In this document: positions 11,049 through 32,659 of the stretch, in pieces
Numbering within the stretch: the first letter of the stretch is position 1
Layout: the number at the start of each line of letters is the position of its first letter
Assembly (NCBI RefSeq): GCF_900078395.1
Contig: NZ_FKLA01000009.1
Span: 1,502,614 to 1,566,613, forward strand
DNA length: 64,000 nt
Reading direction: 5' to 3'
Source: Anaerotruncus rubiinfantis
GTDB taxonomy: Bacteria; Bacillota; Clostridia; Oscillospirales; Ruminococcaceae
Program-made: the position numbers and the translations under genes
Notes under the pieces: generated by a model
Told to the model about the DNA's origin: nothing
Databases searched by the model: none
Seen by the model: only the letters and a program-made list of their open reading frames with translations

Positions 11049-12314
11049 TTACATCAGCAGGTTCGGCAGCCAGGTGACCAGCGGAGGACAATAGGTGACA
11101 ATCAGCAGGGCGACAATGTTGATGAATAATAGCGGCATCATCGCCTTTGTTATCTTCTCAAAGGAGAGGCTGCTGACACCAGTCAGGGTGAAGAGCACCA
11201 TGCCGACCGGCGGGGTGAGCATGCCGATGGTGATGTTGAGGATGCAGATAATTCCGAAATGAAGCGGATCGATCCCAAAGGAGGTGACGACCGGCATGAG
11301 GATCGGAACCAGGATGACAAGGGCAGCGAGACTTTCCATGACCATGCCGACCAGCAGCAGGAAGATATTGATCAGGATCAGCGCGACATACTTGTTGCTG
11401 ATGACGCCGATGAAAAGGGCGGCCAGCTTGGTCGGGACCTGCAGCGCGGTGATGATATAACCGAACGAGTTCGCGCTGCTGACGATAAACAGCACGCTCA
11501 TCGTGAGCAGGATCGTTTCATCAAGCAGGTCGGGAAGATCTTTGAGCCGCAGGTCTTTGGTGATGAAGCCGAGCGCCAGCGCGTACAGAACCGCGACGAC
11601 CGAAGCTTCGGTGGGCGTGCAGATGCCGGTCATAATGCTGCCGAGGATGATCAGCGGGGTCAGCAGCGCAGGCAGGGAGCCGATAAACGAATTGCCCAGC
11701 TTACGGAACCCTTCAAACGGCGTGCAGGGATAACCGCGTTTTTTGGAGATAATAAAAACGTAGATCATCTGGACGATGGCCAGTGTGACGCCCGGCAGGA
11801 CGCCGCCGAGGAACAGCTTGCCGACCGATACGCCGCTCGCAACCGCAAAGACGACCGCTGAGATGCTCGGCGGGATGATCGGGCCGATGCAGGACGAGGC
11901 ACCGGTGACGGCCACGGCGAATTCCTCATCGAAACCGTGGTCTTTCATCGCTTTGATTTCGATTGCTCCCAAGCCGCCCGCATCCGCGACCGCGGAACCG
12001 GACATGCCCGCGAAGATGACCGATGCAGCGACATTGGCGTGGCCCAGACCGCCCGGAATCCAGCCGACCAGCTTCTGGCAGAACCCGAAGATCCGGTCGG
12101 TGATGCCGCCGCGGTTCATGATATTGCCGGCGAGGATGAAGAAGGCGAGGGCAAGCAGGGTGAACGAGCTGGAGCCCGAAACCGCGCGGGAAAGCAGCAT
12201 GTCCGGGCTTTCCCCGTTAACCCAGGAATAGATGAGGGAACTGCACAGCATGCAGAAACCAACCGGCATCCGGATGATCAGGAAGCCGAAGAACAGGATA
12301 AACAATAATGCCAT
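11049..12314 (-). CDS. dctM: TRAP transporter large permease DctM
   Basis: 421 residues with about 12 membrane segments; forms the sodium-driven channel of a tripartite carboxylate transporter. ATG 12314 gives the usual DctM N-terminus (MALLFILFFGFLIIRMPVGF) with AAAGGAG ahead; the longer frame start is unlikely. Family features: LAGNIMNRGGITDRI, GHANVAASVIFAGMSGSAVADAGGLG, FIGPIIPPS-like (CIGPIIPPSISAVVFA), and a C-terminal GMLTPPVGMVLF. It starts only a few bases after dctQ. Substrate is presumably an organic or sugar acid handled by the adjacent enzymes. Confidence 0.95.
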   Translation of the reverse strand: MALLFILFFGFLIIRMPVGFCMLCSSLIYSWVNGESPDMLLSRAVSGSSSFTLLALAFFILAGNIMNRGGITDRIFGFCQKLVGWIPGGLGHANVAASVIFAGMSGSAVADAGGLGAIEIKAMKDHGFDEEFAVAVTGASSCIGPIIPPSISAVVFAVASGVSVGKLFLGGVLPGVTLAIVQMIYVFIISKKRGYPCTPFEGFRKLGNSFIGSLPALLTPLIILGSIMTGICTPTEASVVAVLYALALGFITKDLRLKDLPDLLDETILLTMSVLFIVSSANSFGYIITALQVPTKLAALFIGVISNKYVALILINIFLLLVGMVMESLAALVILVPILMPVVTSFGIDPLHFGIICILNITIGMLTPPVGMVLFTLTGVSSLSFEKITKAMMPLLFINIVALLIVTYCPPLVTWLPNLLM

Positions 12315-12321: not shown

Positions 12322-12828
12322 TCACTCCTTTCCAGCGCCGCGCGCTTTGCATGTCTCAATAATGTTGGAGAAGGTCTTGATCAGGCGCACCAGGATATAA
12401 CCGGCCGCGACGATAAAACCGACCAGGATTCCCGCATAGAAATAGCTCTGCTTGAGCCAGGGGATTGTACCGAGCGGGATATGTTTGAAGATGACATATT
12501 CGTAGCTCACCTTGACCATAAAAATGGTGCAGACCAGCATTACGGAATTGGAAAGGATGTCGAACAGCCATTTTACAACGGTCGGCACCCGGTCATAAAC
12601 CAGAGTGAGTTCGATATGTTTGCCGCGGTGGAAGCAGTACCCGATACCCAGAAAGGCGATCACGCCCTGCATCATGGTGACCACTTCATCTGTCCAGATC
12701 AGCGGCTTGTTGAAAAGATAACGCATAACGACATGGCAGGAGAGGATCACCACCATCACCGCCAGAATTGTGACAAAGAGCGTTTTTTCAATCTTTAAAA
12801 GAGTGTTTTCTAATTTCTTTAACATCAT
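12322..12828 (-). CDS. dctQ: TRAP transporter small permease DctQ
   Basis: 168 residues with four hydrophobic segments and the DctQ hallmark pattern WTDEVVTMMQGVIAFLGIGYCFHRGKHIELTLVYD. It pairs with DctM in the membrane. Two consecutive ATG codons are possible starts (12828 or 12825). It is separated from dctP by 99 bases that hold a strong hairpin, and it is followed almost immediately by dctM. Confidence 0.93.
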   Translation of the reverse strand: MMLKKLENTLLKIEKTLFVTILAVMVVILSCHVVMRYLFNKPLIWTDEVVTMMQGVIAFLGIGYCFHRGKHIELTLVYDRVPTVVKWLFDILSNSVMLVCTIFMVKVSYEYVIFKHIPLGTIPWLKQSYFYAGILVGFIVAAGYILVRLIKTFSNIIETCKARGAGKE

Positions 12829-12927: not shown

Positions 12928-13989
12928 TTACATTGCCTGGATTTCTTCGTACATGCCTTCGATCCACTGATCCTTGAACTGGTCGTACATCGGGGCGATT
13001 TTTTCGCGGAAGGAAGCGATATCGGACTCGATGATTTCGCAGCTTTCACCGATCTGGTCGATGTAGGTCTGCTCTTCTTCAACAGCCTTGGTGTTGTGCT
13101 CGTCGGAAGCAGCTTTGGCGCAGTCATAGATGATCTGAACCTGCTCCTCGGTGAGCTTCTGCTTGGCGGCGTCGCTCATGAAGATGCTGAGCATCTGGAA
13201 CTGATGATAGGTCAGGTTGAGATAATCCTGGACTTCATAGAACTTCATGGTGCTGATGGAAGCGGGCGGGTTCTCCTGTCCATCGACAGTGCCCTGCTGG
13301 AGCGCCAGGTAGGTTTCGTTATAGGCGATCGGAGTCGGGGTTGCGCCGAGGGTGGTGAACGCAGCGATCGGAAGCGGCTCGTTGGCGGCGCGCATCTTCA
13401 GGCCAGCGATGTCGGCGGCGGTGTTCAGCGGCTTTTTGGAGGTGGTCATCTGGCGGGCGCCGTAGTAAAGCGGGGCCAGGACATGGACGCTGCAGGTTTC
13501 GGCAAGGCCGTCGACCAGCTCCTGATAGGGCTCGCTCTCATAGAATTTGAACAGATGATCGCGGTCACGGAACATATAGAACGCTTCCACGATGGTGAAC
13601 GGAGTGTAACGCTGGGTATACTGGCCGGTCGCGGAGATATAGAAGTCCACGTCGCCCTTCGAGCAGGCTTCCGCGAGCTCGGTGTTGGTGCCGAGGGTTT
13701 CGGACGGATAGACGTCAATCTTGACGGCGCCGCCGGTTTTTTCGTTGACCATCGCGGCAAAATTCTCAGCGGTGGTATTCACGAGGTGTTCGGTGGACTG
13801 GGTGTGGCCCAGACGCAGGGTGATGGTTTCAGCGGACGCTTCGGAGGAAGCCGCGGGGGTGGATGCAGCCGGAGTGGAAGCCGCCGGCGCGGAGGAGGAT
13901 GCGCTGTTGGAGCTGGAGCAGCCGCCAAATGCGGAAACCATTGCAGTTGCGAGCAGGAGACTCAGAATACGTTTTGAATTCTTTTTCAT
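12928..13989 (-). CDS. dctP: TRAP solute-binding lipoprotein DctP
   Basis: 353 residues. A lipoprotein signal peptide (KKNSKRILSLLLATAMVSAFGGC) places the lipobox cysteine at 24, followed by a Ser/Ala-rich linker. The mature DctP domain begins around ITLRLGHTQSTEHLVN and contains the family pattern VDFYISATGQYTQRYTPF, LKMRAANEPLPIAAFTTLGATPTPIAYNETYLALQQGTVDGQENPP. The arginine in LKMRA is the conserved carboxylate-binding residue, so the ligand should bear a carboxylate. Strong SD (AAAGGAAAGGAAA). Distinct from the second DctP at 60739. Confidence 0.95.
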   Translation of the reverse strand: MKKNSKRILSLLLATAMVSAFGGCSSSNSASSSAPAASTPAASTPAASSEASAETITLRLGHTQSTEHLVNTTAENFAAMVNEKTGGAVKIDVYPSETLGTNTELAEACSKGDVDFYISATGQYTQRYTPFTIVEAFYMFRDRDHLFKFYESEPYQELVDGLAETCSVHVLAPLYYGARQMTTSKKPLNTAADIAGLKMRAANEPLPIAAFTTLGATPTPIAYNETYLALQQGTVDGQENPPASISTMKFYEVQDYLNLTYHQFQMLSIFMSDAAKQKLTEEQVQIIYDCAKAASDEHNTKAVEEEQTYIDQIGESCEIIESDIASFREKIAPMYDQFKDQWIEGMYEEIQAM

Positions 13990-14020: not shown

Positions 14021-14710
14021 TTATTCACTGAATTCCTTGAGGCCCTCGATTGCGTAGGCGCGCACGGGGCAGGAATCCAGCCCTTTGATAGGCAGCGGGG
14101 AATAGGACATGAAGAATACCCGGGAGGAAAGCTGGTCAAGGTTCTTGAGAACCTCCAGGAACACGATATCCTTTTCCATCAGGATGTCGTGGAAGGCGCA
14201 GACGTCCTCGTAGTTGTTCTCGATCGAAACGCCGTCGCCAAACCCGACGCATTTCACCTTTTTGTCGCGGAACCACTCGGCGGTTTCACGGCAGATGAAC
14301 AGGCGTTTGTCGTCCGGGGTGTTGGTCAACTCGGTGAACGGCGGGATGCGATAGGGGCTGTCCAGGATGACGATGTCGCCCTCCTTTAGAAAGTCGCCGC
14401 AGGCTTTTTCCATGTCCGCCGGCATGATGTGGCTGTTCGGCGCGAGATGTTCGATGTTGACGTAGATCGCCCGTCCCATGAAGGTTGTGAGCGGCAGCGC
14501 CTGCACATCGGTCCAGTTGTCGTTATGGTGGTACGGGCATTCCACGTGGGTCCCCAGATGGCTGGTCAGATCCATAATGGTGTGGAAATCGGGGATCGGA
14601 CCGCCCGTGTTGAAACGGGTCAGCCCGCAGCGACGGGTTTCGGTTTTGGGATCCAGAGTTTTGGTCAGGTCGATGACCCGGAGCCCATCGCCAAGTGAAT
14701 ATCCATTCAT
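14021..14710 (-). CDS. Cyclase-family metal-dependent hydrolase
   Basis: 229 residues of the kynurenine-formamidase/cyclase family (PF04199). The diagnostic metal-site motif reads HLGTHVECPYHHN (consensus HxGTHxDxPxH), with an E at the usual D position. Family members hydrolyse N-formyl groups, isatin or cyclic amides. SD AGGAG is upstream. The gene lies between the ketopantoate-reductase-like gene and dctP in one operon, so it presumably acts on the imported compound. A second, distinct cyclase sits in the other LacI island at 28216. Confidence 0.9.
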   Translation of the reverse strand: MNGYSLGDGLRVIDLTKTLDPKTETRRCGLTRFNTGGPIPDFHTIMDLTSHLGTHVECPYHHNDNWTDVQALPLTTFMGRAIYVNIEHLAPNSHIMPADMEKACGDFLKEGDIVILDSPYRIPPFTELTNTPDDKRLFICRETAEWFRDKKVKCVGFGDGVSIENNYEDVCAFHDILMEKDIVFLEVLKNLDQLSSRVFFMSYSPLPIKGLDSCPVRAYAIEGLKEFSE

Positions 14711-14815: not shown

Positions 14816-15760
14816 TTATTGTGCGCCTGCGGATTTTTCAGCCGCGGCCGCGTTGAGCGCTTCTTTGGTGTGGACAAGCGCGACAATAAACTCGTGGCAG
14901 GGAGCGGGGACTCCATTGCGGCGGCTTGCCCGCACGACGCTGCCGTTGATCGTGTCCACTTCGGTTTTGCGGCCGTCCCGCAGGTCGGCGTAGATCGAGG
15001 TGTAGCCGTCGTGCGCCGCTATGATCTGGTTTTTGACGCGGTCCACCACCTCCTCCTCGTCAAAGCCGAGCTGGTCGCCGTTTGCAACCCGGACAGCTTC
15101 CCGCAGGAGCTGTTCGGTGAGCGACCAGGCATATTCGTTGTCGGTCAGGAAGCCGAGCTTTGTCTGCAGAACGCCGGTCAGTACGCTTGCCGAAACATTC
15201 AAAAACATCTTGTTCCAGATCATCTTGCGGATCTGGTCGGAAAGTTCCGTATCAATGCCGCATGCGGTAAAGCTTTCCGAAATCGGCCGGAGCGCTTCGA
15301 GTTCGCCTTCCAGGCGTCCGATCACAGTTTTTCCGCCGCCGCCGTGGTTGATGGTGGAGCGGTCCGAGATCGAGCTGTTGTGCTGGGTGGTGCCGATGAT
15401 GATCCGTTCAGGCGGAGCGAATTCCCGGAGGACTTCCTCGTGCCCGGAGCCGTTCTGGAGGGTCATCACGTAGGTGGCGGGGCCGATCAGGGCTTTATTT
15501 GCCTGCAGAGCGCTGCGGGAAAACATTGCCTTGACAAAAACGATAATCAGGTCGGCCGGCGGCATGCCGGAACTGTCGGTGGTCGCGTGCGGATGTTCGT
15601 TTGTCCGCGTCCCGTCCGGGTTGCAGATTGTGATTCCGTTTTGGTTTACCGCATCGACCTTCTGCTGGTCGATGTCAATCAGCGTCACCTCATTTTTCCG
15701 GGACAGGTGCCCGCCAAAGAGCATTCCCATTGCACCTGCGCCAAGAATTGCAATCCTCAT
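14816..15760 (-). CDS. Ketopantoate-reductase-family dehydrogenase (ApbA/PanE)
   Basis: 315 residues from ATG 15760, which gives the Rossmann start MRIAILGAGAMGMLFGGHLS right at the N-terminus (GxGxxG) with AAAGGA ahead; the longer frame start is rejected. The C-terminal helical domain includes KMIWNKMFLNVSASVLTGVLQ, with the catalytic lysine of the family in KMIWNK. It reduces 2-keto acids with NAD(P)H; in a catabolic operon the reverse oxidation or a different keto acid is more likely than pantothenate synthesis. First gene of the leftward operon, behind the operator-bearing promoter. Confidence 0.85.
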   Translation of the reverse strand: MRIAILGAGAMGMLFGGHLSRKNEVTLIDIDQQKVDAVNQNGITICNPDGTRTNEHPHATTDSSGMPPADLIIVFVKAMFSRSALQANKALIGPATYVMTLQNGSGHEEVLREFAPPERIIIGTTQHNSSISDRSTINHGGGGKTVIGRLEGELEALRPISESFTACGIDTELSDQIRKMIWNKMFLNVSASVLTGVLQTKLGFLTDNEYAWSLTEQLLREAVRVANGDQLGFDEEEVVDRVKNQIIAAHDGYTSIYADLRDGRKTEVDTINGSVVRASRRNGVPAPCHEFIVALVHTKEALNAAAAEKSAGAQ

Positions 15761-15899: not shown

Positions 15900-16049
15900 T
15901 AGATTTGCTAATGATTTTTGCAATATGCACTAAAAATTATTGTAAATTTAAGCTAAATTGCCCGAAAATGTATTTTCGGTCTTAATGCCATCGATTTCTC
16001 TCTATTTTGAAATGAAACAAAGCTGCAATAGATTTCGCTGAAACTGCAA

Positions 16050-16093: not shown

Positions 16094-17083
16094 TCAGGTG
16101 CTTTTGCGCTCGACCAGTTCGGGCAGCAGGACCATTCTGCGGGAAGGCTTCTGGCCGGACAGGGTGTCGATGATGATCCGCGCGGCCATGATGCTCGCTT
16201 CGAGGCGCTTATTGTCCAGAGAGGTGAGCGGCGGGGTGCAGATTTCCGCATACATCGAATTGTTTACCCCAACGATCGCGATCTGTTCGGGGACATCAAT
16301 CTGCTTGTCGTGCAGCGCCTGCAGGCCGCCCGCCGCGAGCAGATCGATTCCGTAGACAATCCCGTCCACATCGGGATGTTCCCGCAGAACCTGGAGGGTC
16401 GCTTCGTATCCGCCTTCCAAGGCGTTTTCGGTTCGGTAACTCCATTCGGCGGCGTTGATGTCGAGCGATTCCGCCCCCATGAGATAGCCTTTTTCCTTCA
16501 AACGGTTGCTGGGGTTATAGGGCTTGTCGCAGATGAACGCGATCCTGCGCCGCCCTTTTTCGATCAGCAGCTGGACGCAGGACTGCAGCCCGCCCAACTC
16601 ATCCGAAAGGATCCCATAGACGTTCGGCAGATCGATCCAGCCGTTGATGATTGCGACCGGGATGTCGCTTAGGCACTGCGTGATTGCATCTTTCACCGCG
16701 CTGCACTGGAAAATCGAACCCATCATCACGACGCCTTCGACCCGGCGGCGTTTGAGGATGTCGATCGCATTGACCTTTTCGCTGTCCTCGTGCCCGGTGT
16801 TGAGGATGATGCAGCAGTAGCCGCGCCCGACCAGCTCCCGCTCGATGTAGTAAGCGCCGTCGGTGTGGTGGATATTGCGGATATCGGCAACGAGGATGCC
16901 GATGGTCTTTGAGGACTGGTTCACCAGCCCGCGGGCGATTGCGTTGGGCGAGTAGTTATTTTCCTCCACCAGACGCAGGATTTTCTGACGCGTTTCGGGA
17001 TTCACGCCGGGCTTGTTGTTGATCACGCGCGATACCGAGCTTGGTGAGACGCCCACCTGCCTGGCGATATCGTAAATCGTCAT
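16094..17083 (-). CDS. LacI-family regulator of the TRAP/transketolase island
   Basis: 330 residues from ATG 17083, which starts exactly at the canonical LacI HTH (MTIYDIARQVGVSPSSVSRV, hinge NNYSPNAIARGL); AGGAG lies ahead and the longer start is rejected. The periplasmic-binding-like ligand domain follows (about 60-330), with ASRRMVLLPELVERKST at the end. It sits between the two operons it most likely represses; GTGAYATCGATRTCAC palindromes occur at both candidate promoters. LacI proteins typically bind a sugar or sugar acid as inducer. Confidence 0.93.
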   Translation of the reverse strand: MTIYDIARQVGVSPSSVSRVINNKPGVNPETRQKILRLVEENNYSPNAIARGLVNQSSKTIGILVADIRNIHHTDGAYYIERELVGRGYCCIILNTGHEDSEKVNAIDILKRRRVEGVVMMGSIFQCSAVKDAITQCLSDIPVAIINGWIDLPNVYGILSDELGGLQSCVQLLIEKGRRRIAFICDKPYNPSNRLKEKGYLMGAESLDINAAEWSYRTENALEGGYEATLQVLREHPDVDGIVYGIDLLAAGGLQALHDKQIDVPEQIAIVGVNNSMYAEICTPPLTSLDNKRLEASIMAARIIIDTLSGQKPSRRMVLLPELVERKST

Positions 17084-17294: not shown

Positions 17295-17310
17295 GTGATA
17301 TCGATATCAC
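17295..17310. promoter_or_regulatory. 16-bp palindromic operator
   Basis: GTGATATCGATATCAC, a perfect palindrome with a central CG typical of LacI-family operators. It lies in the 386-bp gap between lacI and the cupin gene and may autoregulate lacI or form a loop with the site at 17424. Confidence 0.75.
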
Positions 17311-17381: not shown

Positions 17382-17443
17382 TTGATTTCAGCCAAAGGAT
17401 GTGTTATTTTAGTTTTGTCGACAGGGTGACATCGATGTCACCC
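17382..17443 (+). promoter_or_regulatory. Promoter and 20-bp LacI operator of the rightward operon
   Basis: TTGATT (17382-17387), a 17-bp spacer and TATTTT (17405-17410), followed at 17424-17443 by a perfect 20-bp palindrome, GGGTGACATC plus its complement. The operator lies just downstream of the expected start, a blocking position. Core: GTGACATCGATGTCAC. Confidence 0.8.
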
Positions 17444-17468: not shown

Positions 17469-17819
17469 ATGGTTAGAAGAAGCAATGAGAAGCATTCCGA
17501 ACGTAAGCCGGCGCCGTTTGGCGGCAAAAATGAGATCACTGTCCGCAGCTTGCTCAACGGCCCTGAAGAACTTTATCAGAAAGGCCGTGTTTTCGCGCAC
17601 ACAACCGTTTATCCGGGCAGTGCCATCGGTTATCACGTGCATGATGGCGAGTCCGAGACCTATTATATCCTCAGCGGCAGAGGAATTTTTAACGACAATG
17701 GGACCGTTGTTGAGGTCGGGCCGGGAGACGTCACTTTCACCGGCGACGGGGAAGGACACAGCATCGAGGCCACGGGGGACGAGCCGATTGAGATGATCGC
17801 GCTCATCCTCTACCGGTAA
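17469..17819 (+). CDS. Small cupin protein
   Basis: 116 residues from ATG 17469 (GGAAGGA ahead). Single-domain cupin with the metal-binding motif GYHVHDGESETYYILSG (His, His, Glu) and the second motif GDVTFTGDGEGHSIEATGD with its histidine. Such proteins act as sugar isomerases, epimerases or lyases, or simply bind small ligands. It is the first gene of the rightward operon under the LacI operator, so it is likely to be an isomerase or mutarotase for the pathway intermediate; this is inferred from context. Confidence 0.85.
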   Translation: MVRRSNEKHSERKPAPFGGKNEITVRSLLNGPEELYQKGRVFAHTTVYPGSAIGYHVHDGESETYYILSGRGIFNDNGTVVEVGPGDVTFTGDGEGHSIEATGDEPIEMIALILYR

Positions 17820-17855: not shown

Positions 17856-18683
17856 ATGAAGTATACCTTGGAAAATCTGTTCGGTATCAAGGACGAAGTG
17901 ATCGTCGTTTCCGGCGGCACCGGCACCATCGGGCTGGAGCTGTGCAGAGGATTTGTGAGCCTTGGGGCGAAGGTGGGCATCATCGGGCTCTTCCCGAAGG
18001 ACTGCGAGGCCGCGGTGGAAAGCCTGCATGCGGACTATCCCGGCGCCGATGTGCTGGCGCTGCCCGCCGATGTGACAAACGAACAGGCGGTCAACGACGC
18101 GGTGGATCAGATCCATGCCCATTTCGGAAAGATTGACGGGCTTGTGAACTGCGCGGGCATCAATATCATCAATAGCCTTTCGGCGATCACCATGGCGGAG
18201 TTCAACAAGGTCATGGATGTCAACTTCACCGGCATCGTGATCTGCTGCAAATCGGTCGGCCGCTATATGCTCAAAGCGAAAAAAGGCCGGGTGGTGAATA
18301 TTTCCTCCCTGAGTTCGATCCAGGGAAAATCCTATTACACCGCCTACGCCGCCAGCAAAGCCGCGATCAACGGCTTTACCCGTTCGCTTTCGATCGAGTG
18401 GGCCAAGAAAGACATCAATGTAAACTGTATCTGCCCGAGCCTGATCGTGACTGACATCAACCGCAAGCAGCTTGAACAGAACCCGGAAAGCTTCCAGAAA
18501 CGTGTCGCGAGCATCCCGCGCGGCGTGCCGGGACGCACCGAATGGCTGGTGGGGCCGGTGGTGAGCCTGCTGTCCCCCGGCAGCGTCCATGTCACCGGAC
18601 AGGCAATCTTTGTGGACGGCGGCTCCTCCGCCGGGGATACCTTTGTGCTCGAGGAGAAACGTTTCGCCGAGCAGGATTCCTAA
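17856..18683 (+). CDS. Short-chain dehydrogenase/reductase
   Basis: 275 residues, classical SDR. NAD(P)-binding VSGGTGTIGLELCRGF at ~19-34, NCAGIN, catalytic Ser in NISSLSS, and YTAYAASKAAINGF giving the Tyr-x3-Lys pair, followed by INVNCICPSLIVTD. The acidic residue expected after the second strand is replaced by a hydrophobic/Lys segment (GIIGLFPKD), so the cofactor preference is unclear. Similar to gluconate 5-dehydrogenase and related polyol dehydrogenases. Strong SD (AAAGGAGC). Second gene of the operon. Confidence 0.92.
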   Translation: MKYTLENLFGIKDEVIVVSGGTGTIGLELCRGFVSLGAKVGIIGLFPKDCEAAVESLHADYPGADVLALPADVTNEQAVNDAVDQIHAHFGKIDGLVNCAGINIINSLSAITMAEFNKVMDVNFTGIVICCKSVGRYMLKAKKGRVVNISSLSSIQGKSYYTAYAASKAAINGFTRSLSIEWAKKDINVNCICPSLIVTDINRKQLEQNPESFQKRVASIPRGVPGRTEWLVGPVVSLLSPGSVHVTGQAIFVDGGSSAGDTFVLEEKRFAEQDS

Positions 18684-18709: not shown

Positions 18710-19372
18710 ATGAAGAAGATAGCCGTCATTTTTACTTCGTTTGGCCCGCTGGTCAACAACTTTAAAAAGATTCTGAACGACACGCTCGAGGACTGCGAGC
18801 TGATCTGCATCGCGGACGACAGCCTCATCCGCGACGTCATGCGTACCGGCGCGCCGGACGAAAACGTGGAGAAGCGCACCTTCCTGCATATCGAAAGCGC
18901 AATCGCGGCGGGCGCGCAGATGGTGGTCATTGCCTGCTCTTCGGTTGGGCAGGTCGCCCAGGCGGCGGATGCGAAATACTCCGTCCCGGTGATCCGTATC
19001 GACGACGCCATGGCCATGCGCGCTGTTGCCGCCGGCGGGAAGGTCGGCGTAATCGCAAGTCTGGAAACCACCATCGAGCCGACTGTGAAGCTGCTGCGCC
19101 AGAAGGCGGAAGCGGCCGGCAAGGATGTGGAGATCATCAGCCGGGTGGCGCAGGGCGCATATCAGGCGCTCGGCTCCGGAGACCCCGAGACCCACGACAG
19201 GCTGGTCACTGAAGCCGCGGAGCAGCTCGCGAAGGAAACAGACGTCATCCTGCTCGCGCAGGGTTCGATGGCGCGGCTGGACGAGCCGCTCAACAAAGTG
19301 ATCCCGGTGCCGGTGCTCACCAGCCCTAAGAGCTGCGCGCTGGCGGTCCGTGAGATGCTCAAAAGCTTATAA
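18710..19372 (+). CDS. Asp/Glu racemase-superfamily protein
   Basis: 220 residues from ATG 18710 with AGGAGG ahead. Two-domain racemase fold: FTSFGPLVNNF near the start, a first cysteine in VVIACSSVGQ (~82-91), and GKVGVIASLETTIEPTVKLL. The second catalytic cysteine, usually in the C-terminal half near 'xxCTxxP', is not obvious; the region reads VILLAQGSMARLDE. A one-cysteine or altered active site suggests a non-racemase activity such as an isomerase or decarboxylase (the superfamily includes arylmalonate decarboxylase). Third gene of the operon; it shares no motif with sugar enzymes, which makes the pathway unusual. Confidence 0.8.
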   Translation: MKKIAVIFTSFGPLVNNFKKILNDTLEDCELICIADDSLIRDVMRTGAPDENVEKRTFLHIESAIAAGAQMVVIACSSVGQVAQAADAKYSVPVIRIDDAMAMRAVAAGGKVGVIASLETTIEPTVKLLRQKAEAAGKDVEIISRVAQGAYQALGSGDPETHDRLVTEAAEQLAKETDVILLAQGSMARLDEPLNKVIPVPVLTSPKSCALAVREMLKSL

Positions 19373-19388: not shown

Positions 19389-20417
19389 ATGAAAGCGTTC
19401 GTGATTGAAGGCAAGGATTGTTCCTATTTTGCCGACGTCGAGGAGCCGCAGCTCAAAGACGCACATTCGGTCAAAGTGCAGGTTGAATCCTGCGGAATCT
19501 GCGGCACCGACATCAAGATTTTTGAAGGGAAGCATTCCCAGTCTGTGGGCGCGAAACGCATCCCCGGACATGAATTTGCCGGCGTTGTCACAGAAGTGGG
19601 CAGCGGCGTGAAAAGCCTCAAAGTGGGGGACCGGGTCGTGCATGAGCCGATTGACTACTGCGGCACCTGCTACGCCTGCCGCAAAGGACAGGGAAATGTT
19701 TGCAGCAGCCTGCATGTGACCGGCTGCAACATGAGCGGCGGCATGGAGGAATACTTCGTCGCGGGCGAACACCAGTGGCACAAGCTTCCGGATTGGATCA
19801 GCTGGGACGAAGCTGCGCTCATCGAGCCGTACACCATCGCGGGGCAGGTCTGTTCGCGTGCCGAGCTCGAGCCGGAGGACACGATGCTCATCCACGGCGC
19901 GGGGCCCATCGGGCTCATGCTGGCGGACACCGCCATCCATATGGGCGCCACCGTCATGATCAGCGAGGTCAGCGACGGGCGGCTCGCGCTCGCAAGGGAA
20001 ATCGGCGCGCAGCATGTTATTGACGCGAAGAAAGAAGACGTCAATGAAAAGGTGATGGAGATCACCGAAGGGGTCGGTCCGAACATCGTGTGCGACTGCG
20101 CGGGCATCCCCAGATTTGCCGAGGACGCGTTCAAAATTCTTTCCCCGGCCGGGCGGTTTGTCCCGGTGGCAGGCGTGCCGTTTACCTGTGACGGATACAT
20201 CGCGATGCGCAAACAGCTTAAAATCGTCGCCTCGCGGCTGCAGATGCACCAGTTCGTGCCGGTCATCTCCCGATTCAAGCTCTACCAGGAGCACGCGCGG
20301 CGGATGATCACCGATGTGTTTGATTTTGCCGACACCCAAAAGGCGTTCGAACACGCCGCCGCGCGTCTGCCGCAGACCGGGAAGATCGTGCTGCGCTTTC
20401 ACAAGAATCCCGGCTGA
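19389..20417 (+). CDS. Zinc-dependent medium-chain alcohol dehydrogenase
   Basis: 342 residues from ATG 19389. Catalytic zinc ligands: Cys in ESCGICGTDIKIFEG, the GHEFAG histidine-glutamate, and the structural zinc cluster CGTCYACRKGQGNVC. The Rossmann motif is IHGAGPIGLMLADTAIHMGA. This is the sorbitol/threonine/galactitol-1-P dehydrogenase branch. It likely oxidises a polyol or hydroxy intermediate of the pathway. It directly precedes the transketolase genes. Confidence 0.93.
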   Translation: MKAFVIEGKDCSYFADVEEPQLKDAHSVKVQVESCGICGTDIKIFEGKHSQSVGAKRIPGHEFAGVVTEVGSGVKSLKVGDRVVHEPIDYCGTCYACRKGQGNVCSSLHVTGCNMSGGMEEYFVAGEHQWHKLPDWISWDEAALIEPYTIAGQVCSRAELEPEDTMLIHGAGPIGLMLADTAIHMGATVMISEVSDGRLALAREIGAQHVIDAKKEDVNEKVMEITEGVGPNIVCDCAGIPRFAEDAFKILSPAGRFVPVAGVPFTCDGYIAMRKQLKIVASRLQMHQFVPVISRFKLYQEHARRMITDVFDFADTQKAFEHAAARLPQTGKIVLRFHKNPG

Positions 20418-20454: not shown

Positions 20455-21291
20455 ATGCCGTTGACTGAAACGCGCGTCCAGGAGCTGGACGCCTTATGTA
20501 AACAATTCCGGATCGATACGGTCGAACTGCTGCACGCGGTCCAGACCGGCCACGCGGGCGGTTCGCTGTCCGTCTGCGAAATCCTGGTCACGCTCTATAT
20601 GGAGTGCGCCAACATCACGCCCGAAAACCAGCATGACGCGGGGCGCGACCGTATCGTGCTCTGCAAAGGGCACGCGGCGCCGATGCTCTACCGGTGCCTT
20701 TGTGAAAAGGGCTTCTTCCCGAAAGAAGAGATGAAGACCCTGCGCCAGCCGGGCAGCCGTCTGCAGGGGCATCCCTGCTCGAAAAAGACCCCCGGCGTGG
20801 AGCTTTCCACCGGGCCGCTCGGCCTGGGGCTTTCCGCCAGTGTGGGTATGGCCTGCGCGAAAAAGCTCTCGAAGGCGGGCGGGTACATATTCCCGGTGCT
20901 CGGCGACGGTGAACTCAATGAGGGAACCGTTTGGGAGGCGGCGATGTCCGCCGCGAAATTTGCGTGCGACAACCTGGTCGCGATCGTGGACTGGAACAAG
21001 GTCCAGCTCGATGGTTTGGCCAAAGACGTCATGCCGATCGGCGATCTGGCCGCGAAGTGGGCGAGCTTCGGGTGGAAGGTCTACGAATGCGACGGGCACA
21101 ACATCGCCCAGCTTTATAATGCGATCGAAGCCGCTAAAAATGCAGCCGATCCCATGCCGCGGGTCGTGCTTGCAAATACCATTAAAGGCAAAGGCGTCTC
21201 CTTCATGGAGGGGACCAACAAATTCCACGGCAAAGCCATCACCGATGAGGAATATGAACTGGCGATGCGCGAACTAAGGGGGGCGAAATAA
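20455..21291 (+). CDS. Transketolase, N-terminal (TPP-binding) subunit, copy 1
   Basis: 278 residues, the TPP-pyrophosphate half of a split transketolase. Motifs: TGHAGGSLS, CKGHAAPMLY, QGHPCSKKTPGVELSTGPLGLGLS and the TPP signature GDGELNEGTVWEAAMSAAKFACDNLVAIVDWNK. Conserved histidines of transketolase are in place. Its stop overlaps the start of the C-terminal subunit by one base (TAATG), as in functional split pairs. Substrate cannot be read from the sequence. Only moderately similar to copy 2. Confidence 0.93.
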   Translation: MPLTETRVQELDALCKQFRIDTVELLHAVQTGHAGGSLSVCEILVTLYMECANITPENQHDAGRDRIVLCKGHAAPMLYRCLCEKGFFPKEEMKTLRQPGSRLQGHPCSKKTPGVELSTGPLGLGLSASVGMACAKKLSKAGGYIFPVLGDGELNEGTVWEAAMSAAKFACDNLVAIVDWNKVQLDGLAKDVMPIGDLAAKWASFGWKVYECDGHNIAQLYNAIEAAKNAADPMPRVVLANTIKGKGVSFMEGTNKFHGKAITDEEYELAMRELRGAK

Positions 21292-22235
21292 TGCCGCAGG
21301 CTTTACGTGATGTATATGGAGAGTCGCTGCGCAAATACGGCAAGGCGAATGAAAAGGTGGTCGTGCTCGACGCGGATCTCGCCACCAGTACAAAATCGGT
21401 CCTTTTTGCACAGGAATGCCCCGACCGGTTCTTTGACGTCGGGATTGCCGAAGCCAACATGGTTTCGATGGCCGCGGGCTTCGCGAGCAGCGGCTACATC
21501 CCGTTTATCAACACCTTCGCCACCTTTGTGGCGAGCATCTGCGCCCTGAGCGCCAAGAGCCTGATCGCCTATTCCGGACTGAACGTCCGGCTTATCGGTG
21601 GAAATAACGGGTTGACCGGCGGCTATGACGGAGCGACCCATCACAGCTTCGACGATATCAATGTCATGCGCGGCATCCCCGGTATGCTGGTGATGTCCCC
21701 GAGCGACCCGGTTATGGTGGACTGGATGGTCAGGACGCTCATCGAAGATTACAACGGGCCGGCTTATGTGAGCCTTTCCCGCAGCGGATATGACCCGCTT
21801 TATCAGCCGGGAGAAAGCTTCACCATCGGCAAGGCGAAACAGCTGCGCGACGGCGCGGACCTTTCGATCTTCGCGTACGGGCTTTCGGTTTACCGTGCGA
21901 AGAAGGCGGCCGAAGAATTGGCCGCGGAGGGTATTTCAGCACGGGTTTACGATATGTTCACGATCAAACCCCTCGACTGTGAAGCGGTGCTCGCGGCCGC
22001 GCGCGAAACCGGCGCGATCGTGACCGCGGAGGAGCATTCGATCCTCGGCGGGCTTGGCACCGCGGTTGCGGAGACGCTCGCGAAGAACCGCGTCTGCGTC
22101 CCGCTTGAAACGGTCGGCATCCGCGACTGCTTCACCGAAAGCGGCGCCTATGAAGATCTGGTCAGGGAGTTCAAAATCGACGTGGATTCGATCAAGCAGG
22201 CTGCCCGGGACGCGGTTTCGGAAAAGGGAAGGTGA
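21291..22235 (+). CDS. Transketolase, C-terminal subunit, copy 1
   Basis: 314 residues: pyrimidine-binding domain (DVGIAEANMVSMAAGFASSGYIPF, with the catalytic glutamate) and C-terminal domain (AKKAAEELAAEGISARVYDMFTIKPLD, TAEEHSILGGLG). Partner of the gene immediately upstream. The pair transfers a two-carbon ketol unit or may act as a DXPS-like synthase; which one is not decidable here. Confidence 0.93.
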   Translation: MPQALRDVYGESLRKYGKANEKVVVLDADLATSTKSVLFAQECPDRFFDVGIAEANMVSMAAGFASSGYIPFINTFATFVASICALSAKSLIAYSGLNVRLIGGNNGLTGGYDGATHHSFDDINVMRGIPGMLVMSPSDPVMVDWMVRTLIEDYNGPAYVSLSRSGYDPLYQPGESFTIGKAKQLRDGADLSIFAYGLSVYRAKKAAEELAAEGISARVYDMFTIKPLDCEAVLAAARETGAIVTAEEHSILGGLGTAVAETLAKNRVCVPLETVGIRDCFTESGAYEDLVREFKIDVDSIKQAARDAVSEKGR

Positions 22236-22244
22236 GGGATCACG

Positions 22245-23081
22245 ATGGATCAAAAGGTCAGAGAACTTTATAAAATCAGCTATGAGCTGCGCCGAAAAGC
22301 GGTGGAGATGGTCAACCACGCCAAGACAGGGCATATTGCGCCGAGCCTTTCGATGGCGGAGATGGTCGCCACCCTGTATTTCGACATCCTGAATGTCGAT
22401 CCGGCCAACCCGCATTGGCAGGACCGCGACCGGTTTGTCCTCTCGAAAGGGCACGCCTGCCCACTCTACTACGCGGCGCTCGCGAAACGAGGATTTTTTC
22501 CGGAGGAGGACCTGATGCAGTACCGGATGCTTGCGAGCAAGCTACAGGGCCATCCGGACATGCGCAAATGTCCGGGCGTCGACATGACGACCGGTTCGCT
22601 CGGCAACGGCGTTTCGGCCGCGCTGGGCATGGCGCTGATTGGTAAGAAGGATCACAGGAATCACTGGGTCTATGCCATTGCGGGCGACGGCGAAATCCAG
22701 GAGGGGATCGTCTGGGAGGCGGCGCTCTACGCGGGCAACGCGAAACTCGACAACCTCATCCTCTTTATCGACAATAACGGATTGCAAAGCGGCGGTTCGG
22801 TTGCTTCGATCCAGGATCTTGGTGATTTGGAGGCGCGTTTTTGCGATTTCAAATGGGATACCCAGGTCATCGACGGCCACGATATCGAGGCGATCCGCCG
22901 CGCGGTCGAGACCGCGAAGCAGCGCAAGGGCACCCCTTCGGTCATCATCGCCAAGACCACGAAAGGCAAGGGTGTTTCGTTTATGGAGAACCAATACCTT
23001 TGGCACATGAAGGCGCCGAACGCGGAAGAATACCGAATCGCAATGGAAGAACTTGGAAAGGCGGTGGAACAGTATGCCTGA
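22245..23081 (+). CDS. Transketolase, N-terminal (TPP-binding) subunit, copy 2
   Basis: 278 residues; TPP motif GDGEIQEGIVWEAALYAGNAKLDNLILFIDNN and SKGHACPLYY are intact. The first substrate-loop motif reads TGHIAPSLS instead of the usual GHxGGSLS in copy 1, a change next to the catalytic histidine that may alter specificity. Estimated by eye at about 40% identity to copy 1, so the two pairs are old paralogues rather than a recent duplication. Confidence 0.92.
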   Translation: MDQKVRELYKISYELRRKAVEMVNHAKTGHIAPSLSMAEMVATLYFDILNVDPANPHWQDRDRFVLSKGHACPLYYAALAKRGFFPEEDLMQYRMLASKLQGHPDMRKCPGVDMTTGSLGNGVSAALGMALIGKKDHRNHWVYAIAGDGEIQEGIVWEAALYAGNAKLDNLILFIDNNGLQSGGSVASIQDLGDLEARFCDFKWDTQVIDGHDIEAIRRAVETAKQRKGTPSVIIAKTTKGKGVSFMENQYLWHMKAPNAEEYRIAMEELGKAVEQYA

Positions 23082-24012
23082 TATGGTTTCTACGCGCACC
23101 GGTTTTGGGCAGGGCGTGATGGCGCTCTCCGAAACCTGCGATAAAATCCTGGTTGCTTCGGCGGACACTTACCGTTCGTTCGCGCTGGGCGAATATGCGG
23201 GCAAATATCCCGACCGTTACTTTGAATTCGGCATTGCCGAACAGAATATGATCACCGCTTCCGCCGCAATGGCGAGCGAAGGCTACACCGTCTTTGCGGT
23301 CGGCTACAGCCCATTCCTTTCGATGCGCGCCGCCGAACAGATCCGCACCTTCGTAGCCTACCCAAACCTGAATGTTAAGGTTGTGGCGGGCTTGGGCGGT
23401 CTTTCGGGCGACACCGACGGCGTCACCCACCAGGGCACCGAGGACCTTGGGCTCATGCGTACCATCCCGAACCTCACGGTCGTCTGTCCGGCGGACGCTG
23501 TGGCGGCAAAGGCATTTGTGAAGCTGGTTGCGGAAATTGACGGGCCGGTCTACCTGCGGCTTGGCCGCGGCGCCACGCCGGTCATCTATCCCAAGGATCA
23601 GCAGTTTACCCTTGGCAAAGCAGTCTCGGTGCGCGACAACGGCAATGACCTGGCGATCATCGCCGCGGGCCCGTGCGTCGGGGAAGCGGCAATCGCCGCC
23701 GACCGGCTGCGGGAAAAGGGCGTGTGCGCGAAGGTGTTGGATATGCACACGATTAAACCCCTTGACACCGAAGCGCTGGAAGCCGCTTTCGCCTCCTGCA
23801 GGAGGGTCATGACCGTCGAGGACGGCACCATATACGGCGGGCTTGGCAGCGCGGTGCTCGAGTACATCGCGGAAAGCGGCATCGCCATGGAAAGCTGCAA
23901 ACGGCTCGGAATGACCACTTTCGGCACGGCGGGTACCCTGCCGGAGCTGCTCGGATATTTCGGCATCGACGCCGCGGGAATCGAAAAACAGGCGCTCGCA
24001 ATGCTCAAATGA
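23074..24012 (+). CDS. Transketolase, C-terminal subunit, copy 2
   Basis: 312 residues from ATG 23074, overlapping the end of the N-terminal subunit by eight bases. FEFGIAEQNMITASAAMASEGYTVFAVGYSPF carries the catalytic glutamate; C-terminal motifs VLDMHTIKPLDTEALEAAF and TVEDGTIYGGLG. It is the last gene of the operon, before a strong terminator. The presence of two complete split transketolases behind one regulator is unusual. Confidence 0.92.
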   Translation: MPDMVSTRTGFGQGVMALSETCDKILVASADTYRSFALGEYAGKYPDRYFEFGIAEQNMITASAAMASEGYTVFAVGYSPFLSMRAAEQIRTFVAYPNLNVKVVAGLGGLSGDTDGVTHQGTEDLGLMRTIPNLTVVCPADAVAAKAFVKLVAEIDGPVYLRLGRGATPVIYPKDQQFTLGKAVSVRDNGNDLAIIAAGPCVGEAAIAADRLREKGVCAKVLDMHTIKPLDTEALEAAFASCRRVMTVEDGTIYGGLGSAVLEYIAESGIAMESCKRLGMTTFGTAGTLPELLGYFGIDAAGIEKQALAMLK

Positions 24013-24095: not shown

Positions 24096-25335
24096 TCAGG
24101 GATTTGCGGGAAGATAGGCGCAGCGAAAGCCAATCCGTTCGGCCCGGTATTCCGGCCGGTGCGCGAGGTTCAGCCAGAAGATCCCCGCGCTCTGTCCATG
24201 GTACCAGTGGCCGCCGCGCAGGGCGGCCATCTCCCCGTTATTGCGAAAATACAGGTCGCCGGGCGCGCATTTTTCATCAGAAGGGAAGATGCAGGCGATC
24301 CGCAGGATTTCCGGGACATCCACCCCGGAAAGCGCGGTGAAGTCGCAAAAACGCATATGCCCGTAGGTTTCGTCCACGCCGGGCGTTTTGTGCATGTAGT
24401 CCTCCTGCCGGTAGCGCCGCGCGTCCGAAAGCGCGAACGCGGGCGTGCCGCCGGCGGGCGGCGGGGCCGCGGTGTAGTCGAATGCCGCCGGCGGGCGGCG
24501 GGGCCGCGGTGTAGTCGAAATGCAGGGCATATTTCGCATCCGGCGGGACGGGTTCCCCCGTTGGCAGGAGGGCATGCCAGTACGGGCTGCCGCGCCGCTG
24601 GGCATCCGAGCTGGCGTCAAGCGCTTCCGGCAGCAGCAGCAGTTTTCCGTCGCGCATCCGCAGTCCGCCCACCCATTCCGCGACGTTTCCGTTCAGGTCG
24701 AAAATGCCGTCCAATGTGCCGTCATGCGACCAGGCGGCGGGTTCGCTGCCGGTGAGGACCCGGGAAGGCCTTCCGTCCGGCATGAAAGCCGCCGGTTCGC
24801 CGCATTCTTCGGGACGGGCGCAGTCGGCCCCATAGCGGTTGTTTCCGCGCGGGTTCAGCGAATGGGCGCGGCACCAGAGCGCGAGTCCCGCCCACTCAAA
24901 GTTGCTCATCAGATGCCAGCCCTTGCCTTTTTCGGCGCAGCAGGCGAGGGCTTCGTCATAATTGATGAAGTTTTTGATGTCGCGGCCGGGCAGGCTGTAG
25001 GCGAGGCCGTCCTCCATCGTGTTCTGATATTTGGAAAGGTATATATAGTCCGTGCCGTCCGCAAACATCGGGTGCGGGCGGTGCTCAGCACCCGGCAGCA
25101 CTTCGTCAAGATAAAATTTCGGCACGCGTACCATGAGCGAAGGCCTGCCCGAGCGGTCATAAAGCAGGGTGTTGCGCGAACCGGTCAGCCGCTCCACAAT
25201 CTCCTTCACGGGCAGGCCGCCGCGCAGGCACTTTTCGAGAAGCGGCAGGCTGCCGGTATTTTCCGCATATGGAACCGCAAAATTCCGGAGGATTTCCTGT
25301 TCCATACCGGCGGGATCTTTCGGTGGAATCCGCAT
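24096..25335 (-). pseudogene. FGE/SUMF1-like protein gene, frameshifted by a 37-bp tandem duplication
   Basis: The N-terminal frame (start 25335) and the C-terminal frame (ending 24096) encode one FGE-sulfatase-domain protein. Evidence: LMSNFEWAGLALWCRA, FDLNGNVAEWVGGLRM and, in the second frame, GGHWYHGQSAGIFWLNLA and GFRCAYLPANP, the closing block of the fold. The frames join at FDYTAAPPPAGG, which is encoded twice: a 37-bp unit occurs as two identical adjacent copies (24446-24482 and 24483-24519). Deleting one copy restores an open frame of about 400 codons. As written, translation shifts to an arginine-rich tail. It is third in the lacI-hydantoinase operon. It may be a recent mutation, a slippage switch or an assembly error. 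Confidence 0.85.
24446..24519. repeat. 37-bp perfect tandem duplication
   Basis: Two adjacent identical 37-bp copies, each starting TGCCGCCGGCGGGCGG and ending GTAGTCGAA. Because 37 is not a multiple of three, it frameshifts the host gene. The unit itself contains inverted GC-rich runs that could promote slippage. Confidence 0.95.
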
Positions 25336-26783: not shown

Positions 26784-26814
26784 GAAAACAGGCTCCTCTC
26801 TTTTTACAGTTCTA

Positions 26815-27801: not shown

Positions 27802-28036
27802 GTCGGTAAAATCCCCTTCTTTTCCTTCTGGACGGCATTTTTCTTAATTATAGCAAAACCGGGTAAGGATTTCAATAATTTTAACCGTTTTCAATTTCGT
27901 TAATAAAAATATATATGCAAATTCGAAAAAAAGCAAACAAAATATTAGTGAAATCTAAAAAATTGTTGATATTGGATAGCAAATGAATTAATTTATTTGC
28001 ATATTTAACAAAAATTCAGTTTTATTAAAATAATTA

Positions 28037-28087
28037 TTGTCTTTTTAAAAATTAGCTTTATAATGAAATTGTTGCAAGCGGTTACAA
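28037..28087 (+). promoter_or_regulatory. Promoter and LacI-type operator of the rightward catabolic operon
   Basis: TTGTCT (28037-28042), a 16-bp spacer, TATAAT (28059-28064), then TTGCAAGCGGTTACAA (28072-28087), an imperfect palindrome with a central CG, right at the expected start. The whole 27802-28215 gap is very AT-rich and otherwise contains no gene. Confidence 0.75.
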
Positions 28088-28174
28088 AATATTTGCCAAA
28101 GGTTGTGAAGAAAAAGGAAAATACAAAAAATGAACCAAGAATTTTTGAATGTGCTCCAAATGTTTTCTCTGTAT

Positions 28175-28190
28175 TTGAAAGCGGTTAAAA
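28175..28190. promoter_or_regulatory. Second LacI-type operator
   Basis: TTGAAAGCGGTTAAAA matches the site at 28072 at 14 of 16 positions and lies 103 bp downstream of it, just before the SD of the cyclase gene. The spacing suits roadblock or looping. Confidence 0.6.
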
Positions 28191-28215
28191 GACAAAGCTT
28201 GGAGGTATCGCCCAG

Positions 28216-28917: not shown

Positions 28918-28918
28918 G

Positions 28919-29914: not shown

Positions 29915-29918
29915 ACGG

Positions 29919-30854: not shown

Positions 30855-30929
30855 GAGCGGTTTTTTGGAATAGAGAATGGCAACCCCAAAAATAAACCGG
30901 TCCTGCCGGTAAAATTTAGGAGGATTCAA

Positions 30930-32618: not shown

Positions 32619-32659
32619 CCCCGAAAATTTTGAAGCGCCCAATCACTGTTTGACCGTAT

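What the first reader, a model, noticed from the sequence alone, without database searches (positions are those of the whole stretch)
20455..24012. Two complete split transketolases in one LacI-controlled operon
Four consecutive genes encode two N-terminal and two C-terminal transketolase subunits, each pair overlapping by a few bases. The pairs are clearly divergent (by eye about 40% identity), and copy 2 has TGHIAPSLS where copy 1 has GHAGGSLS at the substrate loop. The operon also has a cupin, an SDR, an Asp/Glu racemase-like protein and a zinc alcohol dehydrogenase, behind a strong operator, with a TRAP transporter across the divergent promoter. Established split-transketolase pathways handle unusual sugars, e.g. 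sulfoquinovose; no sulfo-sugar-specific gene is visible here. I infer a novel route for a sugar acid or related carboxylate, with two C2-transfer or TPP steps.
Basis: partly seen in the sequence, partly recalled or inferred. Interest (0 to 1): 0.72.

Follow-up and report, generated by a model that had tools for sequence, protein, structure and literature searches.

The report
Two-transketolase sugar-acid catabolic operon
A rare gut-bacterial gene cluster carries two specialised split transketolases that have both lost the same phosphate-contacting residue, and it probably breaks an unusual sugar acid down two carbons at a time.

Summary
Two split transketolase (TK) pairs lie at 20455-24012, 43% identical in the N halves and 36% in the C halves, behind cupin, SDR, Asp/Glu-racemase-like (AGR) and Zn-dehydrogenase genes, with two perfect operator-like palindromes upstream. 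A KPR/cyclase/TRAP unit lies beyond the divergent lacI. The AGR-ADH-TK1-TK2 core is found in four other genomes but is rare, so not housekeeping. Both TKs lost the conserved phosphate-contacting His (yeast H469): Asn in TK1, Leu in TK2, in the window and all three relatives first aligned, against His in 26 of 26 ordinary split TKs sampled. The pairs come from different lineages; TK2 groups with TKs that mostly sit beside AGR and TRAP genes. Best reading: a carboxylate counterpart of the sulfo-TK pathway. A dehydrogenase makes a keto-hexonate, TK1 removes C2, AGR and/or cupin isomerises the C4 acid, TK2 removes a second C2, leaving glyoxylate. Specialisation is shown by sequence; substrate and step order are inferred. 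New variant of a known kind; interest 0.6.

The parts
20455..21291 (+). TK1-N: N-terminal split transketolase subunit, copy 1
   Evidence: PF00456 171 bits; loop TGHAGGSLS, NKFHGKAI
21291..22235 (+). TK1-C: C-terminal subunit, copy 1; phosphate-contacting His replaced by Asn (GGNNGLTGGY)
   Evidence: PF02779/PF02780; residue table; alignment to 6yaj and human TK
22245..23081 (+). TK2-N: N-terminal subunit, copy 2; TGHIAPSLS and YLWHMKAP
   Evidence: PF00456 210 bits
23074..24012 (+). TK2-C: C-terminal subunit, copy 2; phosphate-contacting His replaced by Leu (AGLGGLSGDT); ATG start at 23074 overlaps TK2-N by 8 bases
   Evidence: PF02779/PF02780
17469..17819 (+). Cupin_2 protein (candidate isomerase), first gene of the operon
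   Evidence: PF07883 2.9e-15; start chosen by ATG and upstream GGAAGGA
17856..18683 (+). SDR dehydrogenase (gluconate-5-dehydrogenase-like among others, below the cut-off of each of the 25 NCBIfam families shown)
18710..19372 (+). AGR: Asp/Glu/hydantoin-racemase-fold protein, invariant Cys78 and Gln186, no Cys in the C-terminal motif LAQGSMAR
19389..20417 (+). Zn-dependent dehydrogenase, RspB/PRK10083-like (candidate 5-dehydrogenase of a hexonate)
   Evidence: NF007489 213 bits against a cut-off of 376; best PDB hit RspB 4ilk
16094..17083 (-). LacI-family regulator
17295..17310 (.). operator palindrome GTGATATCGATATCAC
17426..17441 (.). operator palindrome GTGACATCGATGTCAC
15986..15999 (.). 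weak operator-like site before the KPR/TRAP unit; a second at 15841-15854
   Evidence: a 2-mismatch site before KPR in L002 at 7196; a 3-mismatch site in L001 at 6889 is near chance (18 of 200 shuffles)
14816..15760 (-). KPR: ketopantoate-reductase-family oxidoreductase (candidate 2-oxo-acid reductase)
   Evidence: TIGR00745 255 bits, cut-off 141
14021..14710 (-). PF04199 'cyclase' metal-dependent hydrolase family
12928..13989 (-). TRAP solute-binding protein (DctP)
12322..12828 (-). TRAP DctQ subunit
11049..12314 (-). TRAP DctM subunit

Best explanation
An accessory LacI-controlled operon for a sugar acid that is not phosphorylated. SHOWN by sequence: the two TK pairs are distinct, conserved, specialised lineages; both lost the His that helps hold the substrate phosphate and kept the checked catalytic residues; the AGR-ADH-TK1-TK2 core is conserved in four other genomes, and LacI, KPR, cyclase and TRAP go with it in two of them. 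INFERRED: TRAP imports a hexonate or related acid. ADH and SDR (and perhaps KPR or cyclase) turn it into a keto-hexonate ending in HOCH2-CO- (fructuronate, tagaturonate or 5-ketogluconate type). TK1 passes the C2 ketol unit to a sugar phosphate such as glyceraldehyde-3-P, giving xylulose-5-P and a C4 aldehyde acid. AGR and/or cupin convert that into a C4 3-oxo acid. TK2 removes a second C2 unit as xylulose-5-P and leaves glyoxylate, which KPR could reduce to glycolate to balance redox. This is the sulfo-TK logic with a carboxylate in place of the sulfonate and two dedicated enzymes in place of one.
For: Head-group residues: R-S-F-H-R is described for the phosphate in S. stipitis and C. hydrogenoformans TKs and R-A-F-D-R in the modelled Faecalicatena sulfofructose TK (PMC11659671 section 22). 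Here TK1 is R-S-F-N-R and TK2 R-S-F-L-R in 4 of 4 rows each (window, L001, L002, L003), against 26 of 26 ordinary split TKs with His; L120 agrees. An E. coli TktA variant changed at this His and two Arg (R358I/H461S/R520Q) cleaves 5-keto-gluconate to tartaric semialdehyde (PMC12016104, passages). The C6-C4-C2 two-step TK logic is in PMC11659671 (passages). The core recurs in L001, L002 and L120 (order AGR-ADH-TK1-TK2) and L003 (ADH-AGR-TK1-TK2); LacI, KPR, cyclase and TRAP recur in L001 (downstream, same strand) and L002. TK2 groups with mostly AGR-linked TKs (100/94 in N halves, 99/92 in C halves). AGR elsewhere sits with DUF1537 acid-sugar kinases plus RuBisCO-like or beta-keto-acid-cleavage enzymes, which fits 3-oxo sugar acids. 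Domain results for the eight operon genes, LacI, KPR, cyclase and TRAP show no kinase. The ADH is nearest RspB.
Against: No substrate or activity is shown. R359, S386 and R528 are kept in both TKs, so phosphate binding is not abolished (it is needed for the usual acceptor). The motif Ser is not strict even in ordinary TKs (Ala in 5 of 26). The His also varies in other specialised TKs (Ser in 8 of 8 of another group; Tyr in L141 and L143), so it marks specialisation, not this substrate. The engineered TktA triple mutant is described as only 55.3% more active on 5-ketogluconate than its parent, so the His is not a strict gate. In E. citroniae (L003) the core lies behind an AraC-type regulator and unrelated genes, with no cupin, SDR, LacI, KPR or TRAP in the DNA held, and the contig ends shortly after TK2; L120 (8.5 kb contig starting at AGR) shows none of them either. 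SDR and cyclase have no firm role. ADH, SDR and AGR lie far below the curated cut-offs shown. I know of no characterised sugar-acid isomerase with the AGR fold.
Confidence: 0.4

Rival explanations
1. The two TKs act in parallel, not in series, on two different short ketose acids (for example two epimers, or a C5 and a C4 acid); AGR and the dehydrogenases only interconvert stereoisomers.
For: The TKs are separate lineages; a TK1-like pair occurs alone in L141 with PdxA, a 2-hydroxyacid dehydrogenase and three xylose-isomerase-like barrels, and TK2-like pairs occur alone with AGR.
Against: In the five copies of this core seen, both pairs occur together: window, L001, L002, L003, L120.
Confidence: 0.22
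2. A sugar or polyol phosphorylated by a kinase encoded elsewhere; the TKs act on a sugar phosphate with an altered chain, as recalled for apulose-4-phosphate.
For: R359, S386 and R528 are kept in both TKs; a TK group with Ser at the His position has, in L040, a glycerol-kinase-like FGGY kinase close by.
Against: No kinase among the operon and TRAP-side genes; TRAP carriers usually take organic acids (recalled; L-gulonate is one case, PMC5788505 passages); the His is lost in both TKs.
Confidence: 0.14
3. Sulfo-sugar (sulfoquinovose or a degradation product) catabolism by a divergent sulfo-TK.
For: Two C2 steps fit; split TK in an anaerobic Firmicute.
Against: Motif R-S-F-N/L-R, not R-A-F-D-R; two TKs, not one; the operon and TRAP-side genes annotated show no named sulfo-pathway enzyme.
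Confidence: 0.06
4. Redundant pentose-phosphate transketolases carried along in a sugar operon, with no special substrate.
For: The catalytic residues checked are kept (H30, H69, H103, H263, E418, H481).
Against: Rare, beside other TKs in the same genome, with a conserved His replaced in both pairs in each copy examined.
Confidence: 0.08

Closest known systems
Sulfo-TK pathway (SqwGH) of anaerobic Firmicutes
   Same: Split TK in an accessory cluster; the described logic is C6 ketose -> C4 aldose + xylulose-5-P -> isomerase -> C4 ketose -> C2 aldehyde + xylulose-5-P (PMC11659671, passages); the same His is changed (to Asp, section 22).
   Different: One TK does both steps there, two TKs are present here; motif R-A-F-D-R there; AGR/cupin instead of SqwI; a TRAP carrier and redox enzymes that suggest a carboxylate.
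Engineered E. coli TktA R358I/H461S/R520Q
   Same: Changed at the same His; makes tartaric semialdehyde from 5-keto-D-gluconate (PMC12016104, passages).
   Different: Artificial triple mutant, described as 55.3% more active on this donor; here both Arg positions are kept.
L-gulonate TRAP pathway of Haemophilus influenzae (GulPQM, GulD, UxuB, UxuA, KdgK, KdgA)
   Same: TRAP import of a hexonate and oxidation at carbon 5 to fructuronate (PMC5788505, passages).
   Different: Continues by mannonate dehydratase, kinase and aldolase there; TK genes here, with no kinase among the annotated operon genes.
Split-chain transketolase of Carboxydothermus hydrogenoformans (6yak/6yaj)
   Same: Best PDB match of all four subunits, two-gene layout.
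   Different: Keeps the His (R-S-F-H-R).
Plant route 2-keto-L-gulonate -> L-idonate -> 5-ketogluconate -> (transketolase?) tartaric semialdehyde
   Same: A reductase / 5-dehydrogenase / TK order has been proposed (PMC11066805, passages).
   Different: The TK step is putative there; no second TK is mentioned in the passages seen.

Membership tests
Split transketolase (TK-N + TK-C) | PF00456 half and PF02779+PF02780 half on separate adjacent genes, catalytic His/Glu kept | tested here: met
Ordinary (phosphate-type) transketolase | R-S-F-H-R head-group motif | tested here: not met
   TK1 R-S-F-N-R, TK2 R-S-F-L-R; 26 of 26 ordinary split TKs sampled have the His, 21 of 26 the Ser (motif)
Housekeeping transketolase | present in nearly all relatives | tested here: not met
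   TK2-N type in 1 of 391, 2 of 397 and 1 of 308 genomes; TK1 was not searched in this way
Sulfo-TK (SqwGH) | R-A-F-D-R motif | tested here: not met
Sulfo-TK (SqwGH) | SqvD and SqwI isomerases in the cluster | tested here: inconclusive
   operon genes are cupin, SDR, AGR and ADH; no profile of SqvD or SqwI was run
Cofactor-independent Asp/Glu racemase superfamily (AGR) | fold | tested here: met
Cofactor-independent Asp/Glu racemase superfamily (AGR) | two catalytic cysteines | tested here: inconclusive
   Cys78 is the only invariant Cys among 39 rows; the C-terminal motif is LAQGSMA without Cys. That the second Cys normally sits there is recalled, not tested.
RspB-type Zn-dehydrogenase (NCBIfam PRK10083) | curated cut-off | tested here: not met
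   213 bits against 376; a relative, not a member. That this family holds hexonate 5-dehydrogenases is recalled.
5-keto-hexonate transketolase activity | cleavage of an unphosphorylated keto acid | not testable with these tools
   needs purified enzymes

The most novel reading that the evidence does not exclude
A 'carboxy-TK' pathway: a gut anaerobe breaks a keto-hexonate (or, with KPR, cyclase and a 5-dehydrogenase upstream, a 2-keto-gulonate/ascorbate breakdown product) into two xylulose-5-phosphate-borne C2 units and glyoxylate, without phosphorylating the acid. It uses two transketolases that apparently lost the same phosphate-contacting His separately, and an Asp/Glu-racemase-fold enzyme acting as isomerase or epimerase of C4 3-oxo acids. 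The same AGR would feed RuBisCO-like/DUF1537 and BKACE/DUF1537 routes in other bacteria.
Probability: 0.28. Interest if true: 0.78.

Novelty: new variant of a known kind. Interest (0 to 1): 0.6.

Why it matters
If true, transketolase-based removal of C2 units is not a peculiarity of sulfosugars but a more general way for anaerobes to open up oxidised sugars. One head-group residue (His to Asn, Leu, Asp, Ser or Tyr) could help to sort split TKs by substrate class and make many unassigned ones testable. It would also give natural enzymes for the 5-ketogluconate-to-tartaric-semialdehyde type of cleavage that has been approached with engineered TktA, and a candidate function for an Asp/Glu-racemase-like family with no assigned role that I know of.

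Tried and rejected
Tandem duplication of one TK pair: rejected, the pairs fall in different parts of both trees (unrooted, drawn at the midpoint). In the C-half tree the TK2/type-C join carries a long-branch warning; in the N-half tree the warning concerns TK1 and L088, so TK1's exact place is open (its C-half join to the ordinary TKs has support 89/57 only).

Housekeeping TK: rejected for TK2. Sulfo-TK membership: motif not met.

Regulon search for further genes, up to 2 mismatches: in G002 the pattern occurs only at the two operon borders (2 sites, backward control 0). G001 has 2 sites (control 1) and G003 6 (control 2), none beside the operon, not pursued; G615 has none. L001 at 6889 and L003 at 2709 have 3 mismatches and are near chance (18 and 28 of 200 shuffles).

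Literature: searches (57 papers, 20 listed; 0 papers; 11, 10 listed; 6; 11) listed no paper whose title or abstract start speaks of a two-TK sugar-acid operon; one search showed 5 of 348, all on TRAP transporters. Searches, on apionate and RuBisCO-like proteins, gave nothing on AGR in what was listed. Only openly licensed PMC papers were searched, so the pathway may be described elsewhere. Papers seen only as passages or one section: PMC11659671, PMC12016104, PMC11066805, PMC5788505.

Rows dropped or noted: L042 was left out of the C-half tree (very divergent); it also has Asn at the His position. In the type-C group (15 C-half rows) 13 have AGR next to the TK; L087 has no AGR in the 14 kb held (L132) and L050's TK is on the opposite strand from AGR. 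The 26 'ordinary' C halves come from the nearest relatives of TK2-N plus L015, so they are a biased sample. Ten AGR and TK2-N homologue clusters share a longest-contig length; I entered 20 of 96 AGR rows and 34 of 120 listed TK rows, so this only suggests shared contigs.

Odds: after re-reading (the mutant is 55.3% more active, not newly active; L003 lacks TRAP and LacI) I lowered the best explanation from 0.42 to 0.40 and the novel case from 0.30 to 0.28, and raised two rivals by 0.01.
Full report
WHAT IS THERE. The window is from a Clostridia genome close to Anaerotruncus rubiinfantis (TK2-N 99% identical to a cluster with a protein of that name); no whole genome is held for it. On the + strand, cupin (17469-17819), SDR (17856-18683), Asp/Glu-racemase-family protein AGR (18710-19372), Zn-dehydrogenase (19389-20417), TK1-N (20455-21291), TK1-C (21291-22235), TK2-N (22245-23081) and TK2-C (23074-24012) follow each other closely. 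On the - strand lie lacI (16094-17083), then a separate unit KPR, PF04199 cyclase, TRAP P, Q and M down to 11049. A terminator-like hairpin of 13 pairs follows lacI (19 terminator-like sites were found against 16.2 expected, so this is suggestive only). Two perfect palindromes precede the operon; weaker copies, each near what chance allows, precede KPR. In the relative L002 the same motif, with 2 mismatches, stands before both units (1 of 200 shuffles had two matches at 3 mismatches), and in that genome (G002) it occurs nowhere else at up to 2 mismatches.

CONSERVED, RARE, NOT HOUSEKEEPING. A scan of GTDB genomes with the AGR alignment kept 80 loci (best 80 of 249 confirmed). L002 (Clostridiales MAG) carries the whole set in the window's layout up to the contig end, and L001 (Enterocloster MAG) carries AGR, ADH, TK1 and TK2 followed on the same strand by LacI, KPR, cyclase and TRAP; identities are 58-83%. 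L001's contig begins just before AGR, so cupin and SDR cannot be judged there; the first-pass gene caller missed TK1-N and TK2-N of L002, which one search recovered at 72 and 73%. L003 (Enterocloster citroniae) has ADH-AGR-TK1-TK2 behind an AraC-type regulator, without cupin, SDR, LacI, KPR or TRAP in the DNA held. A fifth copy, L120 of G615, has AGR-ADH-TK1-TK2. The TK2-N type is found in 1 of 391 genomes of the class of G002 (next best 400.6 bits against 516; 227 of 391, G002 included, have a TK-N match at the threshold used), 2 of 397 genomes of the family of G003 and 1 of 308 of the family of G002 (the sets may overlap). Carriers have other TKs: G001 has 3 TK-N matches, one in a 686-aa frame, G003 has 12.

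BOTH TKs ARE SPECIALISED, IN DIFFERENT WAYS. The head-group motif described for phosphate is R-S-F-H-R, and R-A-F-D-R in the modelled sulfofructose TK (PMC11659671 section 22, read). On MAFFT alignments of the loci the His is Asn in 4 of 4 TK1-C, Leu in 4 of 4 TK2-C (window, L001, L002, L003 in each case), His in 26 of 26 ordinary split TKs, Asn in 15 of 15 of the type-C group and Ser in 8 of 8 of a further group. The motif Ser is kept in TK1 and TK2, is Ala in 5 of 26 ordinary rows, and is lost in the 14 type-C rows that cover it. The last Arg is kept in TK1 and TK2 and is Ser in 14 and Asn in 1 of 15 type-C rows. The catalytic residues checked (H30, H69, H103, H263, E418, H481 in yeast numbering, recalled) are kept in TK1 and TK2. 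Numbering is consistent: the His lies eight residues before the Asp of the DGxxH motif, as H461 and D469 (recalled) do in E. coli. An engineered TktA changed at this His and two Arg makes tartaric semialdehyde from 5-keto-gluconate; it is described as having 55.3% enhanced activity, so the change helps but is not a switch (PMC12016104, passages).

TWO LINEAGES. Maximum-likelihood trees put TK2 beside the type-C group for the N half (100/94) and the C half (99/92, with a long-branch warning), and TK1 elsewhere. The operon thus seems to combine an AGR+TK2-type module with a separate TK1. Type-C neighbourhoods are AGR - TK-N - TK-C - TRAP. In 10 spirochaete loci, a transaldolase-type family (PF00923 in the one member tested) occurs in 8 and a Cupin_2-type family (one member tested) in 9, with a regulator that looks like GntR by eye. 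A TK1-like pair (58% and 46%) sits in E. citroniae with a PdxA, a 2-hydroxyacid dehydrogenase and three xylose-isomerase-like barrels, with Tyr at the His position.

WHAT AGR SUGGESTS. AGR is next to TK genes in 18 of the 80 loci by my reading. Otherwise it shares loci with a 420-aa family in 36 loci (one member tested is a RuBisCO-like protein), DUF1537-kinase-type families in 31 and 16 loci (three members tested) and a 574-aa family in 32 loci (one member tested, no Pfam hit). In E. citroniae an AGR paralogue sits with TRAP, a cupin 36% identical to the window's, a BKACE and a DUF1537 kinase. RuBisCO-like decarboxylases, BKACE and DUF1537 kinases handle 3-oxo or tetronic acids (recalled), so AGR most likely supplies such an acid. 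Its model is a clear Asp/Glu racemase fold. Cys78 and Gln186 are invariant among 39 rows, and the C-terminal motif has no Cys.

MECHANISM. The sulfo-TK pathway takes a C6 ketose through a C4 aldose, an isomerase and a C4 ketose to a C2 aldehyde, with xylulose-5-P released twice (PMC11659671, passages). Replacing sulfonate by carboxylate gives: keto-hexonate -> C4 aldehyde acid -> 3-oxo C4 acid -> glyoxylate. The operon has candidates for each step: a 5-dehydrogenase-like ADH (L-gulonate oxidation at carbon 5 is known for a TRAP-linked dehydrogenase, PMC5788505, passages), TK1, AGR/cupin, TK2, and KPR as a possible 2-oxo-acid reductase in the place where the sulfo-pathway of Clostridium sp. MSTE9 has its aldehyde reductase. 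This order, the substrate and the roles of AGR, cupin, KPR, SDR and cyclase are inference. A plant route 2-keto-L-gulonate -> L-idonate -> 5-ketogluconate -> (TK?) has been proposed (PMC11066805, passages) and could be the substrate context.

VERDICT. Observation confirmed, interpretation partly supported. It is a new variant of TK-based sugar catabolism; the special-pathway idea survives its own refutation test, while the substrate remains open.

Noticed in passing
window 25452-38653: A second cluster beside the operon: amidohydrolase (-), another LacI (-), then on + a PF04199 cyclase, NAD epimerase, acetamidase/formamidase, a solute-binding protein (by eye), a permease component, further ORFs and an M20 peptidase. 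The shared cyclase family and LacI type suggest a related but separate amide or peptide-linked substrate.
   Followed up: partly
window 24096-25335 (- strand): Two overlapping ORFs in different frames both contain FDYTAAPPPAGG; by eye an FGE/C-type-lectin-like gene split by a short repeat. No Pfam hit at E 1e-8 for 24277-25335.
   Followed up: no
L016 8236-9960 and its family in 32 of 80 AGR loci, many in Paenibacillus: A 574-aa protein family (one member tested, no Pfam match) beside AGR, a RuBisCO-like protein and a DUF1537 kinase: possibly an undescribed acid-sugar route.
   Followed up: partly
L011, L040, L046, L060, L064, L073, L075, L078: Another split TK group with Ser at the phosphate-contacting His (8 of 8), in L040 close to a glycerol-kinase-like FGGY kinase.
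   Followed up: partly
L141 6538-8300: Enterocloster citroniae has a TK1-like pair with Tyr at the His position, in a cluster with PdxA, a 2-hydroxyacid dehydrogenase, three xylose-isomerase-like barrels and a transporter that looks like TctABC by eye.
   Followed up: partly
L142 582-11551: TRAP, a citrate-lyase-like protein, an aldehyde dehydrogenase and a regulator (these three by eye), AGR and a type-C-like TK (motif His to Asn, last Arg to Ser) in one cluster.
   Followed up: partly
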